The notes under the pieces are model-generated. The model was not told the origin of the DNA. It worked only from the letters and a program-made list of their open reading frames with translations, and made no database searches. From the NCBI RefSeq assembly GCF_030646165.1, contig NZ_JAUTDO010000002.1, forward strand, positions 372,001 to 436,000: a stretch of 64,000 nt of DNA, given 5' to 3'. Shown here one piece after another: positions 48,871 through 54,147 of this stretch (position 1 is the first letter of the stretch; each line of letters opens with the position of its first letter). The DNA comes from Conexibacter sp. CPCC 206217. GTDB lineage: Bacteria; Actinomycetota; Thermoleophilia; Solirubrobacterales; Solirubrobacteraceae. A program made the translations under genes and the position numbers.

Positions 48871-49689
48871 TCAGCCGCGCCGCTGCGCCAACGTCGTGAC
48901 GACCGCCTCGTAGACGCCCTCGCCGTTGCGGCCCTCGGCGATGCGGACGTTGGGTCTGCCCTTGATCGCCTCGCGCAGGGTCGGGTCCTTCTCCAGCGCG
49001 TTGGCGACGAGCCAGAAGGTGCCGACGGCGGCGGCGGCGCCGAGGTCCTCGCGCGAGTCGCCGACGGCGATGCACTCCTCGGACGTGTAGCCGCGGATCT
49101 GCATGTGGCGCGCGACCGCCGCCGCCTTCGAGGCCGATCTCGGAACCAGGTGATAGGCGCGCACCTGCTCCAGGCCGGCGAGCGCGTCGGAGCGCGAGTG
49201 GACGGTGCCGTTGTCGACCAGACGCAGGTCGTCGTGGCCGTTGGCGCTCAGCAGCGCGTCGACCTCGAACGCGTCGACGAGGCCGCGGAAGAGGTGCGAG
49301 ACCTCGCGGTCGACGTGCCATGGCGCGTGGTACTCGAGCTGGCCGGGGAAGCGCTCCAGCAGCAGCGCAGGCGCGCCGCGGTCCTCGATCTGCTGGTGGA
49401 TCGTGATGCCGTCGCGCGGCTCCAGTCCGCCCGTGAGCCACTCCAGCTCGCCGTCGACGACGAGGCCCGAGCCGGCCTCGAAGATGTACGCCGAGTGGCC
49501 GAGCAGGCGCGCGTCCTCTCTCACCTGCGTCTCGCGCCGACCGGTGTAGATGACGACCTCGACGCCGGCGCGGTGGCACGCCTCCAGCGCGCGCACCGCG
49601 GCGGTCGAGAAGTTCCCGTCGGCGTCGCTCAGGAGCGACGCGCCGCGGCCCAGCAGGGTTCCGTCGAGGTCGACGTAGAGACAGCGCAT
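48871..49689 (-). CDS. HAD-superfamily type IIB sugar-phosphatase-like protein
   Basis: A 272-aa HAD hydrolase with motif I YVDLDGTLLG, motif II VIYTGR, Lys in PRSASKAAAV and motif IV AVGDSREDLGAA. The C2-type cap between residues about 85 and 195 is like mannosyl-/glucosyl-3-phosphoglycerate phosphatases and Cof proteins. A minus-strand CACAAT ends 7 nt before ATG 49689. Its stop-side neighbour gpsA is convergent. Substrate unknown. Confidence 0.8.
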   Translation of the reverse strand: MRCLYVDLDGTLLGRGASLLSDADGNFSTAAVRALEACHRAGVEVVIYTGRRETQVREDARLLGHSAYIFEAGSGLVVDGELEWLTGGLEPRDGITIHQQIEDRGAPALLLERFPGQLEYHAPWHVDREVSHLFRGLVDAFEVDALLSANGHDDLRLVDNGTVHSRSDALAGLEQVRAYHLVPRSASKAAAVARHMQIRGYTSEECIAVGDSREDLGAAAAVGTFWLVANALEKDPTLREAIKGRPNVRIAEGRNGEGVYEAVVTTLAQRRG

Positions 49690-49708: not shown

Positions 49709-50749
49709 TCAGGCCGCGACCGCCGCCAGCTCCGCCTTGATCGCCGCGGCGAACGCGTCGACGTCCTCCTCCGTCGTGTCCCACGAGCACATCCAGCGAA
49801 CCTCGCCGGTGTTCGCGTCCCACGTGTAGAAGCGGAACTGCTGCTGCAGCCGCGCGGTCACCTCGGCCGGCAGCTTCGCGAAGATCGCGTTCGCCTGCAC
49901 GGTCTGCGTGATCTCCAGGCCGGGCGTGTCGCGCACGGCGTCGGCGAGCCGCGCCGCCATCGCGTTCGCGTGCGAGGCGAGCCGCTCCCACAGGCCGTCC
50001 TCCAGCAGCGCGATGAACTGCGCGGCGAGGAAGCGGCCCTTGGAGGCGAGCTGCAGCGACTGCTTGCGCAGGAACGGCAGGCCGTCGGCCAGCTCGCCCT
50101 CCGGCCGCAGCACGACGACGGCCTCGGCGCCGAGCGCGCCGACCTTCGTCGCACCGAACGACAGCAGGTCGACGCCGGCGCCGGTGGTGATCTCGCGCAG
50201 CGGCACGCCGAGCGCGGCGGCCGCCATCGGCAGCCGCGCGCCGTCGACGTGCAGCAGCATGTGCCGTGCGTGCGCGGCGTCGGCGAGCGCGCGGATCTCC
50301 TGCGGCGTGTAGAGCGTGCCCAGCTCGGTCGACTGCGCGATCGAGACGACCTGCGCCTGCGCCTGGTGCTCGTCGCCGAGGCGATCGGTCAGCCGCACGA
50401 CGTCGTCGGGCACGAGCTTGCCGTCGGGCGTCGGCGTCGTCAGCAGCTTGACGCCGCCGACACGCTCGGGCGCGCCGCCCTCGTCGACGTGCAGGTGCGC
50501 CGTCTGCGAGCAGATCACCGCACCCCAGGCCGTGCACGCGGCCCGCAGCGCGAGCACGTTCGCGCCGGTTCCGTTGAAGACGAGGAAGGCGCGCGCGTCG
50601 TCGCCCAGCTGCTGCTGGATCAGCTCCTGCGCACGCGCGGTCCAGGGATCGGCGCCGTAGGCGACCGCGTGGCCCGTGTTGGCCGCCGCGACCGCCTCGA
50701 CGACGGCCGGGTGCGCGCCCGCGTAGTTGTCGCTCGCGAACGTCGTCAC
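49709..50749 (-). CDS. ltaE: Low-specificity threonine aldolase / beta-eliminating lyase family PLP enzyme
   Basis: A 346-aa fold-type I PLP enzyme: SDNYAGAHPAVVEAV near the N-terminus, FNGTGANVLAL, LHVDGARLPMAAAALG and the Schiff-base Lys in LLSFGATKVGALGAEAVV. Family enzymes cleave beta-hydroxy amino acids to glycine and an aldehyde. GTG 50749 overlaps the SDR stop (GTGA); longer upstream frames are rejected. It is the last gene of the DUF6421 operon, so its true substrate may be specific to that pathway. Confidence 0.85.
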   Translation of the reverse strand: MTTFASDNYAGAHPAVVEAVAAANTGHAVAYGADPWTARAQELIQQQLGDDARAFLVFNGTGANVLALRAACTAWGAVICSQTAHLHVDEGGAPERVGGVKLLTTPTPDGKLVPDDVVRLTDRLGDEHQAQAQVVSIAQSTELGTLYTPQEIRALADAAHARHMLLHVDGARLPMAAAALGVPLREITTGAGVDLLSFGATKVGALGAEAVVVLRPEGELADGLPFLRKQSLQLASKGRFLAAQFIALLEDGLWERLASHANAMAARLADAVRDTPGLEITQTVQANAIFAKLPAEVTARLQQQFRFYTWDANTGEVRWMCSWDTTEEDVDAFAAAIKAELAAVAA

Positions 50750-51492
50750 GACGCGCTGTACAGCGCCAGGCGCTGCCCGTTGACCTTGCGCGCGGCGTCG
50801 CCGAGCAGGTAGACGATCGCGTCCGCGACCTCGCCCGCGTCGGTGAACGTGAGGAACGCCTTCTCGGGCGACTGCTCGCGCATTCTCGGCGTCACGAGCG
50901 CGTTGATCGCGACGACGTTCGCCGTCGGGCGCGCGCCGCCGGCGGACACGTCCAGGCCGCCGAACTCCTCCGCGAGCGCGTACGTCCACGCCTCCGCGGC
51001 GGCCTTCGCCGCGGCGTACGCGGCGTTGCTGCCGGTCGGGCGGACCGCCTGCTTGGCGGAGACGAGCACGAAGCGGCCGCGGCCGGAGCTGGCAAGCGCG
51101 TCGTGGAACGCGCGCGAGGTGTTCTGCGCGGTGCGGATCAGCAGCCCTTCGAGGAACGTCCAGTCCTCAGCCGGAGCCTCGGCGATCGGCTTGCCGCCGC
51201 GCCAGCCGCCGACGGCGTGCACGAGCCCGTCGACGCGGCCGAAGCGCTCCGTCAGCGTCGCCGCCCACGCGGCCGTCTCGTCGGCGTCGAGCAGGTTCAG
51301 CGCCTGCGCGTGGACGCGCTCGGCCGGCAGACCCAGCTGCGCCACGAGCGGGTCGAGATGCTCCTGCGTGCGGTCGGCCAGCGCGACGGTCGCGCCGGCG
51401 TCGGCCAGCGCGCGGGCGACGATCGGCCCGAGCGAGCCGCCGGCGCCGGCGAGGGCGATCACGCGGCCGTCGAGCGAACTGCTTGCGGTCAT
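50746..51492 (-). CDS. Short-chain dehydrogenase of the DUF6421 operon
   Basis: A 248-aa SDR with a variant nucleotide loop (AGAGGSLGP instead of TGxxxGIG), HAVGGWRGG, active site LVSAK and YAAAKAA (Tyr-x3-Lys kept), and C-terminal KVNGQRLALYSAS. It overlaps DUF6421 (ATGA) and the aldolase (GTGA), so the three genes are translationally coupled. Substrate unknown; a beta-hydroxy/keto amino-acid-like compound would link it to the aldolase. Confidence 0.82.
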   Translation of the reverse strand: MTASSSLDGRVIALAGAGGSLGPIVARALADAGATVALADRTQEHLDPLVAQLGLPAERVHAQALNLLDADETAAWAATLTERFGRVDGLVHAVGGWRGGKPIAEAPAEDWTFLEGLLIRTAQNTSRAFHDALASSGRGRFVLVSAKQAVRPTGSNAAYAAAKAAAEAWTYALAEEFGGLDVSAGGARPTANVVAINALVTPRMREQSPEKAFLTFTDAGEVADAIVYLLGDAARKVNGQRLALYSAS

Positions 51493-53603
51493 GCGGGGAC
51501 AGCCTCCTTCGCCGCCGACAGCTTGCCCTGCAGCGACACGTAGAAGAGCGAGAGCGGGAACTCGTCGTCGAGCACCTCGTCGACATACGGTCGCAGATCC
51601 GCAGCCTCCTCGAACGCCCGCGTGCCCGCCACCCAGCGCGAGCTGGAGGCCGGCGAGACGTGCGCGGCGACGAGGTCGTGCGCGGCCGCCCAGTGCTGCA
51701 GCTTCGTGCGCTGGATGCCGGCGCGGTAGAGCGTCTCGACCTGCTCACGCAGCTCCAGCACGCCCTCGGAGACCTGCTCCCAGTCGATCGTCAGGCGGTT
51801 GTCGGTCCAGTGCAGGCGACGCGAGCCGTGCAGGAAGCCGAACAGCAGCTGTCCGCCGAGGCCGTCGTAGTTGCGCACGCGCGTGCCGGTGATCGGGAAG
51901 CGGAAGAGACGGTCGAAGAGGATCGCGTACTGCACGTTGCGCGCGAACGCGAAGCCCTCCTGCTCCAGCTTGACCGCCTCGCTGAACGCGGTCAGGTCGC
52001 AGCGCAGCTCCTCCAGTGCGTACATCCAGAACGGCATCCGCTGGCGGATCATGAACGGGTCGAACGGCAGGTCGCCGTGACTGTGCGCGCGGTCGTGGAT
52101 CAGGTCCCACAGCTCGAACGCGTCACGCGACAGGCGCTCGCTGCTGAGCAGCGCGGCGGCGTCGGGCGGCAGGTTCAGGCGCAGCAGCTCGGCCGCGTCG
52201 CTGGAGGTGCGGCGGAAGCGCTCGGCCTCGCGGTCGCAGAAGATCCCGCCGAAGTGGTTGACGGGCTTGCCGGCGACCGAGACCGTCTCGGGGAACAGGA
52301 CCGCGCAGTCGGACTCGTAGCCGGCGGTGTAGTCGACGAGCGTGACCGGCACGAACTTCGCGTTGTCGTAGCGGTCGCGCTCCAGCTCGGCGAGCCACGC
52401 GGGCCATGGGACGCCGACTATCAGCGCCTCGAAGACTCTGTCGCGCGAGCCGTTCTGCTTGTACATCGGGAACAGCACGAGGTGCTGGATGCCGTCCTCG
52501 CGCTGCAGGTCGGGGCGGAACTGCTCCAGCGCCGCGGTGAAGTCCGGCACGCCGAAGCCGCCGTCGGCCCACGCGCGCAGGTCTGCGACCGCGGCCGCGA
52601 GGTAGTCGGCCTGGTGCGGGAAGCGCGGCGCGAGACCCTCGACCGCGGCGACGATCGCGTCGACGCGCGCGTTCAGCGCGGCGGCGTCGTTGGCCGCGTC
52701 GTCGAGGTCGACCGAGCCGTCGGGGCGCTGCCGCAGGCGCAGCGCGTCGACCTCGGCCTTGAGCGCCTGCCAGTGGGGGTCGTCCTTCGCGGCGACCGCC
52801 TGCGGGAGGGGCTCCAGCGGCGCGGCGAACGCGCGGCGGGCGACCCAGTGGACGAGGTTGAGCCACAGGTCGGCGTGGTCGAGCGCGTCCATGCAGTCGT
52901 CGCCGAACAGGTCGGAGTCGCCCAGCACGACGACGCGGCCCTTGCCGTGCTCGGTGATCGCGACGAGCGGCGCGCTCGGCACGGAGGCGGTCTTCGACGT
53001 GCGCGCGAGCACGTGCGCGCCGTTGGAGAGCTGCAGCGTCGTCGCGCGGTAGAAGCACGCCTGGTGCACGCGCGCGAGCAGGTCGACGCCGTCGGCGGAG
53101 CGCGTCTGGCCCGTCAGCTCGGCGAGGATCCAGTGTGGGCTGGAGCGGTGCTGCTCGTAGTCGGAGACCGTGCGGTTCTCGATCTCGACGTGGAAGCGCG
53201 CGAGCAGCTCGTTGACGTTGTTGCCGTACTTGCGCTGCTCCTCCTCGCCGAGGACGATCAGGCCGCCGCCGGCGTCGACGAACGCCTCGAGCGCGTCGAG
53301 CTCCTCGGGGGTGAAGCGGGGACTGCCGCCGGGGACGACCTGCTCCCACTCCGGCTCCGACGGGTGCGCGATCACGAGCACGTCGGCGGTCGCGAGCGCA
53401 GCGCCGGTCAGCGCGCCCTGCTCGGGCGCGTGGACGGCGACGTCGAGGTCATGGCTGCGCAGCAGCTCGGCGGCGCGCGCGTACGAGGAATCCTGCGGAT
53501 GGGACGGCTGGATCGCACGGGCGACATCCGGACGCACCGTCCATGCCTCCGCGTGTGCCTCGTCGAAGACGATCCGAGCTGATGCCGGACGCTGGGGCGA
53601 CAT
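51489..53603 (-). CDS. DUF6421-type protein with N-terminal GATase-like (DUF4350) domain
   Basis: A 704-aa protein starting at ATG 53603 behind AAGGAG. Residues about 8-265 look like a DUF4350 / class-I glutamine-amidotransferase-like Rossmann domain (RIVFDEAHAEAWT, DVLVIAHPSEPEWE, FVDAGGGLIVLGEEE) without a visible catalytic Cys. Residues about 300-700 match the actinobacterial DUF6421 family, which I recall beside SDR and threonine-aldolase genes in other actinobacteria. A candidate metal site is LIHDRAHSHGDLPFDPF (about 500) followed by ALEELRCDLTAF (about 530). Enzymatic function unknown; a metalloenzyme is inference. Confidence 0.72.
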   Translation of the reverse strand: MSPQRPASARIVFDEAHAEAWTVRPDVARAIQPSHPQDSSYARAAELLRSHDLDVAVHAPEQGALTGAALATADVLVIAHPSEPEWEQVVPGGSPRFTPEELDALEAFVDAGGGLIVLGEEEQRKYGNNVNELLARFHVEIENRTVSDYEQHRSSPHWILAELTGQTRSADGVDLLARVHQACFYRATTLQLSNGAHVLARTSKTASVPSAPLVAITEHGKGRVVVLGDSDLFGDDCMDALDHADLWLNLVHWVARRAFAAPLEPLPQAVAAKDDPHWQALKAEVDALRLRQRPDGSVDLDDAANDAAALNARVDAIVAAVEGLAPRFPHQADYLAAAVADLRAWADGGFGVPDFTAALEQFRPDLQREDGIQHLVLFPMYKQNGSRDRVFEALIVGVPWPAWLAELERDRYDNAKFVPVTLVDYTAGYESDCAVLFPETVSVAGKPVNHFGGIFCDREAERFRRTSSDAAELLRLNLPPDAAALLSSERLSRDAFELWDLIHDRAHSHGDLPFDPFMIRQRMPFWMYALEELRCDLTAFSEAVKLEQEGFAFARNVQYAILFDRLFRFPITGTRVRNYDGLGGQLLFGFLHGSRRLHWTDNRLTIDWEQVSEGVLELREQVETLYRAGIQRTKLQHWAAAHDLVAAHVSPASSSRWVAGTRAFEEAADLRPYVDEVLDDEFPLSLFYVSLQGKLSAAKEAVPA

Positions 53604-53703
53604 GGGTGCTCCTTCCGAGAGTCGAACGGTGCCAAGGAAGCTAGTCCCCACCATCGGCATCTGGAAGGGACCGATCGCTCGTCCTGCTGCAACAATCGAA
53701 CGA

Positions 53704-54147
53704 ATGGACGCAGTCGACCGGCAGATCGTTGCGCTACTCGTCGAGGATGCACGTCGTTCGTACGGCGAGATCGGCCGTCAGGTCGCGCTCAGCGCGCCCG
53801 CGGTGAAGCGCCGCGTCGATCGCCTGCGCGCAAGCGGCGCGATCGAGGGCTTCACCGCGATCCTCGACCACGCCGCGCTCGGCGCCGGCACGGAGGCGCT
53901 CGTCGAGCTGTTCTTCGCCCCCGGCACGCTGCTGGACGAGGTGACCGAGCGGCTGAAGCTGCACCCCGAGGTCGTCGAGGCGTGGAGCGTGACCGGCGAC
54001 GCCGACGCGATCGCGCGCGTCCGGGTCACCGACGCCCGCGACCTGGAGCGCCTGATCATGGCGCTCCAGCGCGACGGCTCCGTCGTGCGCACGCGGTCGC
54101 AGATCGTGCTGTCGCGGCTGGTCGTGCGGGGGCAGGCGGAGCGGTAG
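53704..54147 (+). CDS. Lrp/AsnC-family regulator, divergent from the DUF6421 operon
   Basis: A 147-aa AsnC protein: N-terminal helix-turn-helix (DRQIVALLVEDARRSYGEIGRQVALSAPAVKRRVDRL) and C-terminal RAM ligand domain (TEALVELFFAP, VVEAWSVTGDADAIARV). The 100-nt gap to the divergent operon carries a TCGAACG heptamer twice (53617-53623 and 53695-53701), a candidate operator pair. It probably senses an amino acid and controls DUF6421-SDR-aldolase. Confidence 0.87.
   Translation: MDAVDRQIVALLVEDARRSYGEIGRQVALSAPAVKRRVDRLRASGAIEGFTAILDHAALGAGTEALVELFFAPGTLLDEVTERLKLHPEVVEAWSVTGDADAIARVRVTDARDLERLIMALQRDGSVVRTRSQIVLSRLVVRGQAER

What the first reader, a model, noticed from the sequence alone, without database searches (positions are those of the whole stretch)
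49709..54147. AsnC / DUF6421 / SDR / threonine-aldolase-like cluster: candidate undescribed pathway
Three minus-strand genes are translationally coupled (ATGA and GTGA overlaps) and divergent from an Lrp/AsnC regulator. The lead protein (704 aa) combines a GATase/DUF4350-like domain with a DUF6421 domain carrying a His-rich HDRAHSHGD segment and a downstream Glu pair, suggestive of a metal centre. A PLP aldolase plus an SDR plus a putative metalloenzyme under an amino-acid sensor points to metabolism of a beta-hydroxy amino-acid-like compound. I recall the DUF6421-SDR-aldolase association from other actinobacteria but know of no assigned function.
Basis: partly seen in the sequence, partly recalled or inferred. 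Interest (0 to 1): 0.72.

Follow-up and report, generated by a model that had tools for sequence, protein, structure and literature searches.

The report
Iron–pterin amino-acid oxidation gene cluster
An actinobacterium related to Conexibacter carries a conserved three-gene operon, next to a regulator of the amino-acid-sensing type, whose lead enzyme belongs to a recently recognised iron- and pterin-dependent amino-acid oxidase family and whose partners suggest a route that oxidises an amino acid and then splits it, although the substrate is still unknown.

Summary
The cluster is real and conserved. The window protein matches the PolE fold (Foldseek E 1e-14) and keeps the metal motif as HDRAH-x23-EE.

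DUF6421–SDR–threonine-aldolase is a recurrent operon. An aldolase homologue is in 22 of 22 DUF6421-positive genomes, against 31 of 374 others. An SDR is near DUF6421 in 63 of 77 named loci not cut by a contig end. AsnC accompanies only a minority.

My reading: DUF6421 oxidises (probably beta-hydroxylates) an amino acid, and the aldolase splits the product into glycine and an aldehyde. The SDR resembles dihydropteridine reductase (GGWRGG motif, catalytic Ser replaced by Ala) and may recycle the pterin. Against this, global sequence and fold searches rank classical SDRs first, 14 of 77 loci lack the SDR, and one genome kept the SDR without the other two genes.

Shown: family, fold, motif, co-occurrence. 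Inferred: substrate, hydroxylation, direction, SDR role. Verdict: new variant of a known kind.

The parts
53704..54147 (+). Lrp/AsnC-family regulator, 147 aa, divergent from the operon
   Evidence: Pfam HTH_AsnC-type 1.2e-16 and AsnC_trans_reg 4.3e-16; divergent AsnC also in L025, L026, L043, L045, L046 and in 9 of 80 named loci
53604..53703 (.). 100-bp shared divergent promoter region; the element by the AsnC start (CGTTCGATTGTTGC here) recurs in relatives
   Evidence: AsnC-proximal 12- and 13-mers found with up to 2 mismatches in 5 of 13 intergenic regions, against at most 3 of 13 in 10 mononucleotide shuffles; the 12-mer with 6 of 13 is a separate TTGAC-bearing element that I do not see in the window
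51489..53603 (-). DUF6421 protein, 704 aa: proposed Fe(II)/tetrahydropterin-dependent amino-acid oxidase/hydroxylase
   Evidence: PF19985 2.8e-180; profile of 17 relatives hits SnPolE 9j2e E 3e-93; AF2 model's best PDB match is SnPolE, E 1.1e-14, TM 0.80 on the target
52851..53336 (-). N-terminal DUF4350/GIFT-like domain (residues 90-251), absent from the short-type members
   Evidence: Pfam DUF4350 1.1e-9 and IFT52_GIFT 1.2e-8; Foldseek match to IFT52 5fms; alignment A2
52083..52097 (-). HDRAH (residues 503-507), two predicted Fe-ligand His
   Evidence: invariant H503 and H507; HDxxH in 102 of 103 family members read, HExxH in the PolE-like one
52008..52013 (-). Glu531-Glu532, one of which is the predicted third Fe ligand (equivalent of PolE Glu230)
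   Evidence: both invariant; E532 aligns with SnPolE chain residue 233, which is PolE Glu230 if the offset is 3
50746..51492 (-). SDR, 248 aa, proposed pterin-recycling reductase (resembles dihydropteridine reductase)
   Evidence: ATGA overlap with DUF6421
51193..51210 (-). GGWRGG motif of the SDR (residues 95-100), as GGWAGG in eukaryotic DHPR
   Evidence: V94-G99 (VGGWRG) invariant in 17 linked SDRs; GGWAGG invariant in three DHPR stretches; GGWxG not found in 30 own-genome SDR loci
51004..51057 (-). SDR active-site segment A146...Y159xxxK163; the catalytic Ser position (Y-13) is Ala
   Evidence: of 83 linked SDRs in 82 loci (window not counted) Y-13 is Ala 55, Ser 20, Gln 4, Thr 3, unreadable 1; Ser in 19 of 19 own-genome SDRs parsed with a pattern that allowed Ser, Ala or Thr
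49709..50749 (-). PLP-dependent aldolase of the L-threonine aldolase type, 346 aa
   Evidence: Beta_elim_lyase 1.8e-46; 5vye L-threonine aldolase E 1e-80, 1v72 aldolase 7e-66; homologue in 22 of 22 DUF6421+ genomes

Best explanation
The operon encodes a short oxidative amino-acid pathway. (1) DUF6421 binds Fe(II) through His503, His507 and Glu531/532. It uses O2 and a tetrahydropterin to form a high-valent iron-oxo species that abstracts H from an aliphatic C-H of a free amino acid, most likely at C-beta, giving a beta-hydroxy amino acid. (2) The PLP aldolase splits that product by retro-aldol into glycine and an aldehyde. (3) The SDR reduces the quinonoid dihydropterin back to tetrahydropterin, so the oxygenase carries its own cofactor recycler. 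A pterin-carbinolamine dehydratase is encoded elsewhere in the genome. (4) The divergent AsnC protein adjusts expression to the amino acid. Shown: gene identities, PolE-type fold and motif, operon conservation, co-occurrence. Inferred: Fe/pterin use by this member, hydroxylation rather than desaturation, substrate, catabolic direction, SDR role, AsnC ligand. My sub-estimates: Fe/pterin oxygenase 0.85; hydroxylation followed by aldol cleavage 0.45; SDR as pterin reductase 0.5.
For: Fold and family: A2 profile to SnPolE E 3e-93, Foldseek E 1e-14. Ligands: H, H, E, E invariant; SnPolE Phe140 and Tyr280, mutated in PDB entries, are Phe437 and Tyr579 here. PolE activity depends strictly on Fe2+, O2 and BH4, and rises about 2-3 fold with added QDPR (PMC12614342 section 16). 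Aldolase link: 22 of 22 DUF6421+ genomes against 31 of 374, p 7e-22; full-length, same strand, within about 2.4 kb downstream in 18 of 22 unnamed loci; near in 75 of 77 named loci, plus a partial hit at a contig end in L058. SDR as pterin reductase: GGW[RK]G motif plus frequent loss of the catalytic Ser; a eukaryotic DHPR profile ranks the window SDR first in its own genome although PF13561 ranks it 101st of 114 matches; linked SDRs outscore own-genome SDRs on the DHPR profile, medians 22.6 (n=21) against 4.1 (n=29, two rows apparently one protein), p 2e-5; SDR stays with DUF6421 where the aldolase is about 16 and 25 kb away (L027, L028). PCD (PF01329) is in 21 of 22 DUF6421+ genomes against 191 of 374, p 1.4e-5; by genus 10 of 10 against 136 of 237 in all, p 0.003; confounded by ancestry.
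Against: PolE desaturates Ile and is not reported to hydroxylate it, and a 3,4-desaturated product would not be an aldolase substrate. DHPR is absent from the rows shown of sequence and fold searches with the SDR (best 60 of 300; best 50). The linked SDR is the top DHPR-profile hit in only 6 of 15 genomes; in 7 another SDR is first, G165 has no hit, and in G338 the linked SDR is off the contig. The reverse search (SDR profile against DHPR) does not favour DHPR over generic SDRs. 20 of 83 linked SDRs keep the catalytic Ser. 14 of 77 named loci lack the SDR, and 7 such genomes searched show only generic-level scores elsewhere. G055 keeps the SDR at the same syntenic place without DUF6421 and aldolase, and 4 DUF6421-negative genomes hold an SDR homologue (3 with GGW) without a Biopterin_H hydroxylase. 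PCD is not in the window cluster, and a crude tblastx with three PCD stretches gave only two weak hits (E about 1e-4) over 104 loci. The aldolase also occurs in 31 DUF6421-negative genomes.
Confidence: 0.45

Rival explanations
1. The SDR works on the carbon skeleton, not on the cofactor: it reduces the aldehyde released by the aldolase, or oxidises the beta-hydroxyl to a keto group. The pterin is recycled by general reductases or non-enzymatically.
For: Sequence and fold searches place it among classical SDRs. YxxxK is intact, and 20 of 83 linked SDRs keep the catalytic Ser. It is missing in 14 of 77 loci and can survive without DUF6421.
Against: 62 of 83 linked SDRs have Ala, Gln or Thr at the catalytic Ser position, and the window SDR, not in that count, has Ala: unusual for an alcohol/carbonyl SDR (established knowledge). 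The GGWRGG motif stands where generic SDRs have NNAG, as in DHPR. SDR remains next to DUF6421 where the aldolase lies elsewhere.
Confidence: 0.35
2. The cluster is biosynthetic: the aldolase condenses glycine with an aldehyde (or cleaves a side product), and DUF6421 desaturates or hydroxylates to make an unusual amino acid or signal.
For: PolE acts in antibiotic biosynthesis, and the authors infer diverse unusual-amino-acid pathways from neighbourhoods (passages). A PolE-like copy sits by an NRPS and a Trp-halogenase-like gene in L047.
Against: Among the recurrent neighbour families I recognised no NRPS, ligase or exporter that goes with the operon across lineages, but most of those families were read by eye and not scanned. 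Cleavage is the usual direction in cells for this enzyme class (recalled). AsnC neighbours and an amino-acid permease in L031 fit catabolism.
Confidence: 0.2
3. DUF6421 here is not an oxygenase but a hydrolase-like relative of dipeptidyl-peptidase III.
For: DPP III is the next fold match (best E 8.8e-9).
Against: The DPP III motif HExxGH is absent: 102 pathway-type members read HDxxH. The PolE match is stronger. The paper says DPP III's motif and catalytic His are not conserved in the family.
Confidence: 0.04

Closest known systems
PolE of the polyoxin pathway (DUF6421; PMC12614342; PDB 9j2e, 9j3g)
   Same: Same Pfam family and fold; His/His/Glu ligand set; Phe140 and Tyr280 equivalents conserved
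   Different: Window has HDxxH, not HExxH, and one more residue before the Glu pair (23 against 22 to the first Glu); SnPolE Tyr157 is not conserved as Tyr (alignment ambiguous, Phe or Ile); extra N-terminal GIFT/DUF4350-like domain; partners are SDR and aldolase, not PolF
Eukaryotic quinonoid dihydropteridine reductase (QDPR; 1hdr, 1ooe, 8b5t)
   Same: GGWxGG in place of NNAG, Ala at the catalytic Ser position, YxxxK
   Different: Low overall similarity; closest solved structures are classical SDRs; some linked SDRs keep Ser
L-threonine aldolases (5vye) and the aldolase 1v72 (recalled as phenylserine aldolase)
   Same: Clear homology over nearly the whole length, E 1e-80 and 7e-66
   Different: Coupled in an operon to an oxygenase; substrate unknown
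Aromatic amino acid hydroxylases with PCD and DHPR (PAH system)
   Same: Proposed logic: Fe/pterin oxygenase plus pterin recycling
   Different: No Biopterin_H match in the window protein or genome G000; PolE is reported to show no sequence or structural homology to them (passage); PCD encoded elsewhere in the genome

Membership tests
DUF6421 (PF19985) | profile score above the curated cut-off | tested here: met
   600.2 bits against cut-off 25
PolE-type Fe/pterin-dependent oxidases | HE/DxxHx(21-23)E metal motif | tested here: met
   HDRAH-x23-E531, E532 following; invariant across members
PolE-type Fe/pterin-dependent oxidases | PolE fold | tested here: met
   Foldseek E 1.1e-14, TM 0.80 on target, model mean pLDDT 77.7
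PolE-type Fe/pterin-dependent oxidases | Fe2+, O2 and BH4-dependent amino-acid oxidation | not testable with these tools
   needs purified protein
PolE orthologue (L-Ile desaturase) | HExxH motif and PolF or NRPS context | tested here: not met
   HDxxH; the adjacent genes are SDR, aldolase, HAD, AsnC and a helicase-like gene (the last named by eye); PolF itself was not searched for
Quinonoid dihydropteridine reductase | GGWxGG motif | tested here: met
   GGWRGG, residues 95-100
Quinonoid dihydropteridine reductase | no catalytic Ser (Ala), YxxxK kept | tested here: met
   A146, Y159, K163 in the window; 20 of 83 linked relatives keep Ser
Quinonoid dihydropteridine reductase | closest overall to DHPRs among SDRs | tested here: not met
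   classical SDRs rank first in phmmer, hmmsearch and Foldseek; yet best DHPR-profile hit in own genome
Quinonoid dihydropteridine reductase | quinonoid dihydropterin reductase activity | not testable with these tools
   needs assay
L-threonine aldolase family | full-length homology to solved aldolases | tested here: met
   5vye E 1.1e-80 over residues 3-340; NCBIfam models match below their own cut-offs
L-threonine aldolase family | retro-aldol activity on a beta-hydroxy amino acid | not testable with these tools
   needs assay
Aromatic amino acid hydroxylase (Biopterin_H, PF00351) | Biopterin_H domain | tested here: not met
   no hit; none in G000
Dipeptidyl-peptidase III | HExxGH zinc motif | tested here: not met
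   HDxxH in 102 pathway-type members read
Class I glutamine amidotransferase (N-terminal domain) | nucleophile Cys | tested here: inconclusive
   the expected loop reads LGEEEQ with no Cys in relatives, but the position was chosen from a recalled motif

The most novel reading that the evidence does not exclude
Many Actinomycetota use an undescribed route in which a non-PAH-type iron/tetrahydropterin enzyme beta-hydroxylates a free amino acid, a dedicated dihydropteridine-reductase-like SDR recycles its pterin, and a partner aldolase cuts the product to glycine and an aldehyde, under Lrp/AsnC control in some lineages. That would be an oxidative side-chain removal pathway and a second, independent family of pterin-dependent amino-acid hydroxylases with its own bacterial cofactor recycler.
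Probability: 0.3. Interest if true: 0.75.

Novelty: new variant of a known kind. Interest (0 to 1): 0.52.

Why it matters
The DUF6421 family is large (about 10,000 homologues per PMC12614342, passages read), and PolE is the only member for which my searches found a reaction. This cluster gives the actinobacterial members seen here two concrete partners and therefore a testable reaction order. If the SDR recycles the pterin, it also answers where such bacteria get reducing power for a pterin oxygenase, and supplies a self-contained aliphatic C-H oxidation cassette.

Tried and rejected
Amidotransferase role for the N-terminal domain: no Cys in the expected loop. Downstream HAD phosphatase as part of the system: found only in the window and in Conexibacter L048 among 104 loci, window included. 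SDR shown to be DHPR by global similarity: not supported. SDR in a PAH-PCD operon in a DUF6421-negative genome: G175 has PCD 1.6 kb from the SDR, but an opposite-strand gene lies between and the genome has no Biopterin_H. Conserved extra operon genes giving the substrate: none general; B3/4 and tRNA-synthetase neighbours are local. PCD near the cluster: only two weak tblastx hits, a crude test. Background for the SDR motif: 30 of 114 own-genome PF13561 matches were fetched and 19 of those parsed; one search was a first version that crashed. The count finds SDRs by the motif itself, so it cannot show how often the motif is absent; two BLAST-positive loci that it missed were L059 (gene in pieces) and L068 (has the motif). 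Rows dropped: L091, L103 and L106 (contig ends) from neighbourhood rates; L083 from the motif count; L046 and L047 from SDR rates; L053, L091, L103 and L106 from the tree. In the FastTree of 100 rows the SDR-presence label changes 10 times, at least 5 forced by supported branches, with long-branch warnings. Substrate identity could not be read from sequence. PMC12614342: outline, abstract, section 16 and search passages seen, not the whole text or supplements; all other papers seen only as search listings.
Full report
Observation. The four genes and the two overlaps are as described. Pfam assigns them to AsnC, DUF4350/GIFT plus DUF6421, SDR and Beta_elim_lyase. The DUF6421 profile covers residues 276-697 with E 2.8e-180. 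The window is G000:C12:372001-436000, and that genome holds one DUF6421. The closest named relative found is in Conexibacter sp. CPCC 205762 (82% best-segment identity).

DUF6421 is no longer without function. phmmer finds PolE structures (9j2e, E 7e-11); a profile of 17 relatives raises this to 3e-93. Nat Chem 2025 (PMC12614342; outline, abstract, section 16 and passages seen) reports that PolE, a DUF6421 protein, desaturates L-Ile strictly dependent on Fe2+, O2 and BH4, enhanced about 2-3 fold by dihydropteridine reductase. It proposes the motif HE/DxxHx(21-23)E for the family and notes that many members colocalise with putative amino-acid-modifying enzymes. It was the only paper in the held library containing the term DUF6421. 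No title or abstract listed describes a DUF6421-SDR-aldolase cluster.

The window protein keeps the site. H503, H507, E531 and E532 are invariant in the alignment. Of 103 members read, 102 have HDxxH with 23 residues to the first Glu, while the PolE-like copy L047 has HExxH with 22. In the AF2 model (mean pLDDT 77.7) the His pair lies on helix 489-508 and the Glu pair on helix 525-548; residues 510-520 between them are below 50. The best PDB matches are SnPolE (E 1e-14, TM 0.80 on target), then SmPolE, DPP III, and IFT52 for the N-terminal domain. SnPolE Phe140 and Tyr280 are Phe437 and Tyr579 here; the Tyr157 position is not Tyr.

Neighbourhood. In a phylum sample 22 of 396 genomes carry DUF6421. 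In the 22 pathway-type loci fetched around them (L025-L046, the window not counted), an SDR follows DUF6421 in 21 (L046 ends at the contig edge), and a full-length aldolase lies on the same strand within about 2.4 kb in 18. Exceptions for the aldolase: L027 and L028, where it lies about 16 and 25 kb away; L031, with only about its first 70 residues; and L046. Of 80 named loci (the best 80 of 566 confirmed relatives), 3 end at contig edges. Of the other 77, an SDR is near in 63 and the aldolase in 75 by a 3.5-kb rule, with a partial aldolase hit at the contig end in L058. L054 has none nearby but its genome has one elsewhere. AsnC is divergent in 9 of 80, sits between DUF6421 and aldolase in 4 (L086, L092, L095, L096), and is otherwise placed in 1. 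An aldolase homologue (E below 1e-60) is in 22 of 22 DUF6421+ genomes and 31 of 374 others, p 7e-22; the SDR (E below 1e-25) in 16 of 22 and 4 of 374, p 3e-20. Genomes are not independent; by genus the aldolase link still has p 3e-10.

The SDR. All 17 linked SDRs aligned have VGGWRG; three of 83 found by motif have GGWKG. Eukaryotic dihydropteridine reductases share GGWAGG and have Ala at the catalytic Ser position. The window SDR has Ala there. Of 83 linked SDRs 55 have Ala, 20 Ser, 4 Gln, 3 Thr and 1 is unreadable. In the same genome 19 of 19 parsed SDRs have Ser (the pattern allowed Ser, Ala or Thr), and none of 30 loci has GGWxG. A DHPR profile puts the window SDR first in its genome (E 5e-6; runner-up 4e-5), and the linked SDR first in 6 of 15 genomes. 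Linked SDRs outscore own-genome SDRs on it. Against: overall the protein is nearest to classical SDRs, the reverse profile test is neutral, several linked SDRs (L025, L027, L028, L030) score at background on the DHPR profile, and a VGGF-bearing SDR on another contig of G338 (L161) scores higher still. I put pterin recycling at about even odds.

Dispensability. The SDR is missing in 14 of 77 loci, and the seven such genomes searched show at best 83 bits, the level of generic SDRs (99.8 bits for the best PDB chain on the same profile). On a FastTree of 100 rows presence changes 10 times, at least 5 forced. Conversely, G055 keeps the SDR between the same neighbours (dnaG, a dGTPase-like gene, a glycosyltransferase; named by eye) with DUF6421 and aldolase gone. 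So the aldolase is the constant partner and the SDR a frequent helper, with some life of its own.

Mechanism. An Fe/pterin C-H oxidase whose constant partner looks like a beta-hydroxy-amino-acid aldolase most simply makes a beta-hydroxy amino acid. The aldolase's solved relatives include threonine aldolases and 1v72 (recalled as phenylserine aldolase). PolE's own reaction is desaturation, so hydroxylation is an inference. PCD, the enzyme expected after pterin hydroxylation, is in 21 of 22 DUF6421+ genomes against 191 of 374, but ancestry confounds this; in G000 it lies at C1:526920, on another contig, and it was not found near the cluster in relatives beyond two weak hits.

Regulation. The 100-bp AsnC-DUF6421 gap carries an element by the AsnC start that recurs in 5 of 13 gaps, against at most 3 in 10 shuffles; several relatives, but not visibly the window, also share a TTGAC-bearing element (6 of 13) followed by TACCGT-like letters.

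Verdict. Real, conserved, partly explained by recent work; a new variant of the PolE kind with a distinct partner set, and a sharp experimental question.

Noticed in passing
48871-49689: HAD-IIB phosphatase-type gene starts 19 bp after the aldolase stop on the same strand; found again there only in Conexibacter L048 among 104 loci, window included.
   Followed up: yes
L049:3063-3665 and L094:10145-10861: In two SDR-less loci small genes sit between DUF6421 and the aldolase: a PemK/MazF-like toxin gene in L094 (Pfam 3e-10) and a sub-threshold ribbon-helix-helix hit in L049 (E 0.0026).
   Followed up: partly
L123:11360-12076; also L036, L112, L117, L120, L124: Some Streptomyces and Microtetraspora loci have a free-standing B3/4 domain gene shortly after the aldolase (PF03483 tested in L123 only; the others by clustering or pattern): a weak hint at an amino acid that could be mischarged.
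   Followed up: partly
L060, L062, L064, L089 (after the aldolase): A class I (W/Y-type) tRNA synthetase gene follows the aldolase in four loci (clustered; Pfam tested in L089 only).
   Followed up: partly
L047:6956-8077: PolE-like short DUF6421 (HExxH) next to a tryptophan-halogenase-like gene and an NRPS with a methyltransferase domain.
   Followed up: partly
L201:3524-4204 (G055): Syntenic locus without DUF6421 and aldolase that keeps the SDR with its GGWRGG motif between dnaG-like and glycosyltransferase-like genes.
   Followed up: yes
L051:10065-11362: Two tandem GGWRGG SDR copies, one with Ser and one with Ala at the catalytic position; the aldolase hit there is in two pieces.
   Followed up: no
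L031:9179-9394: Second DUF6421 locus of G008 holds only about the first 70 residues of the aldolase, and an amino-acid permease lies divergently upstream.
   Followed up: no
L161 (G338 C305): An SDR with VGGF instead of VGGW, on another contig than DUF6421, is the best match to the eukaryotic dihydropteridine reductase profile among the 15 genomes searched (E 7e-12).
   Followed up: partly
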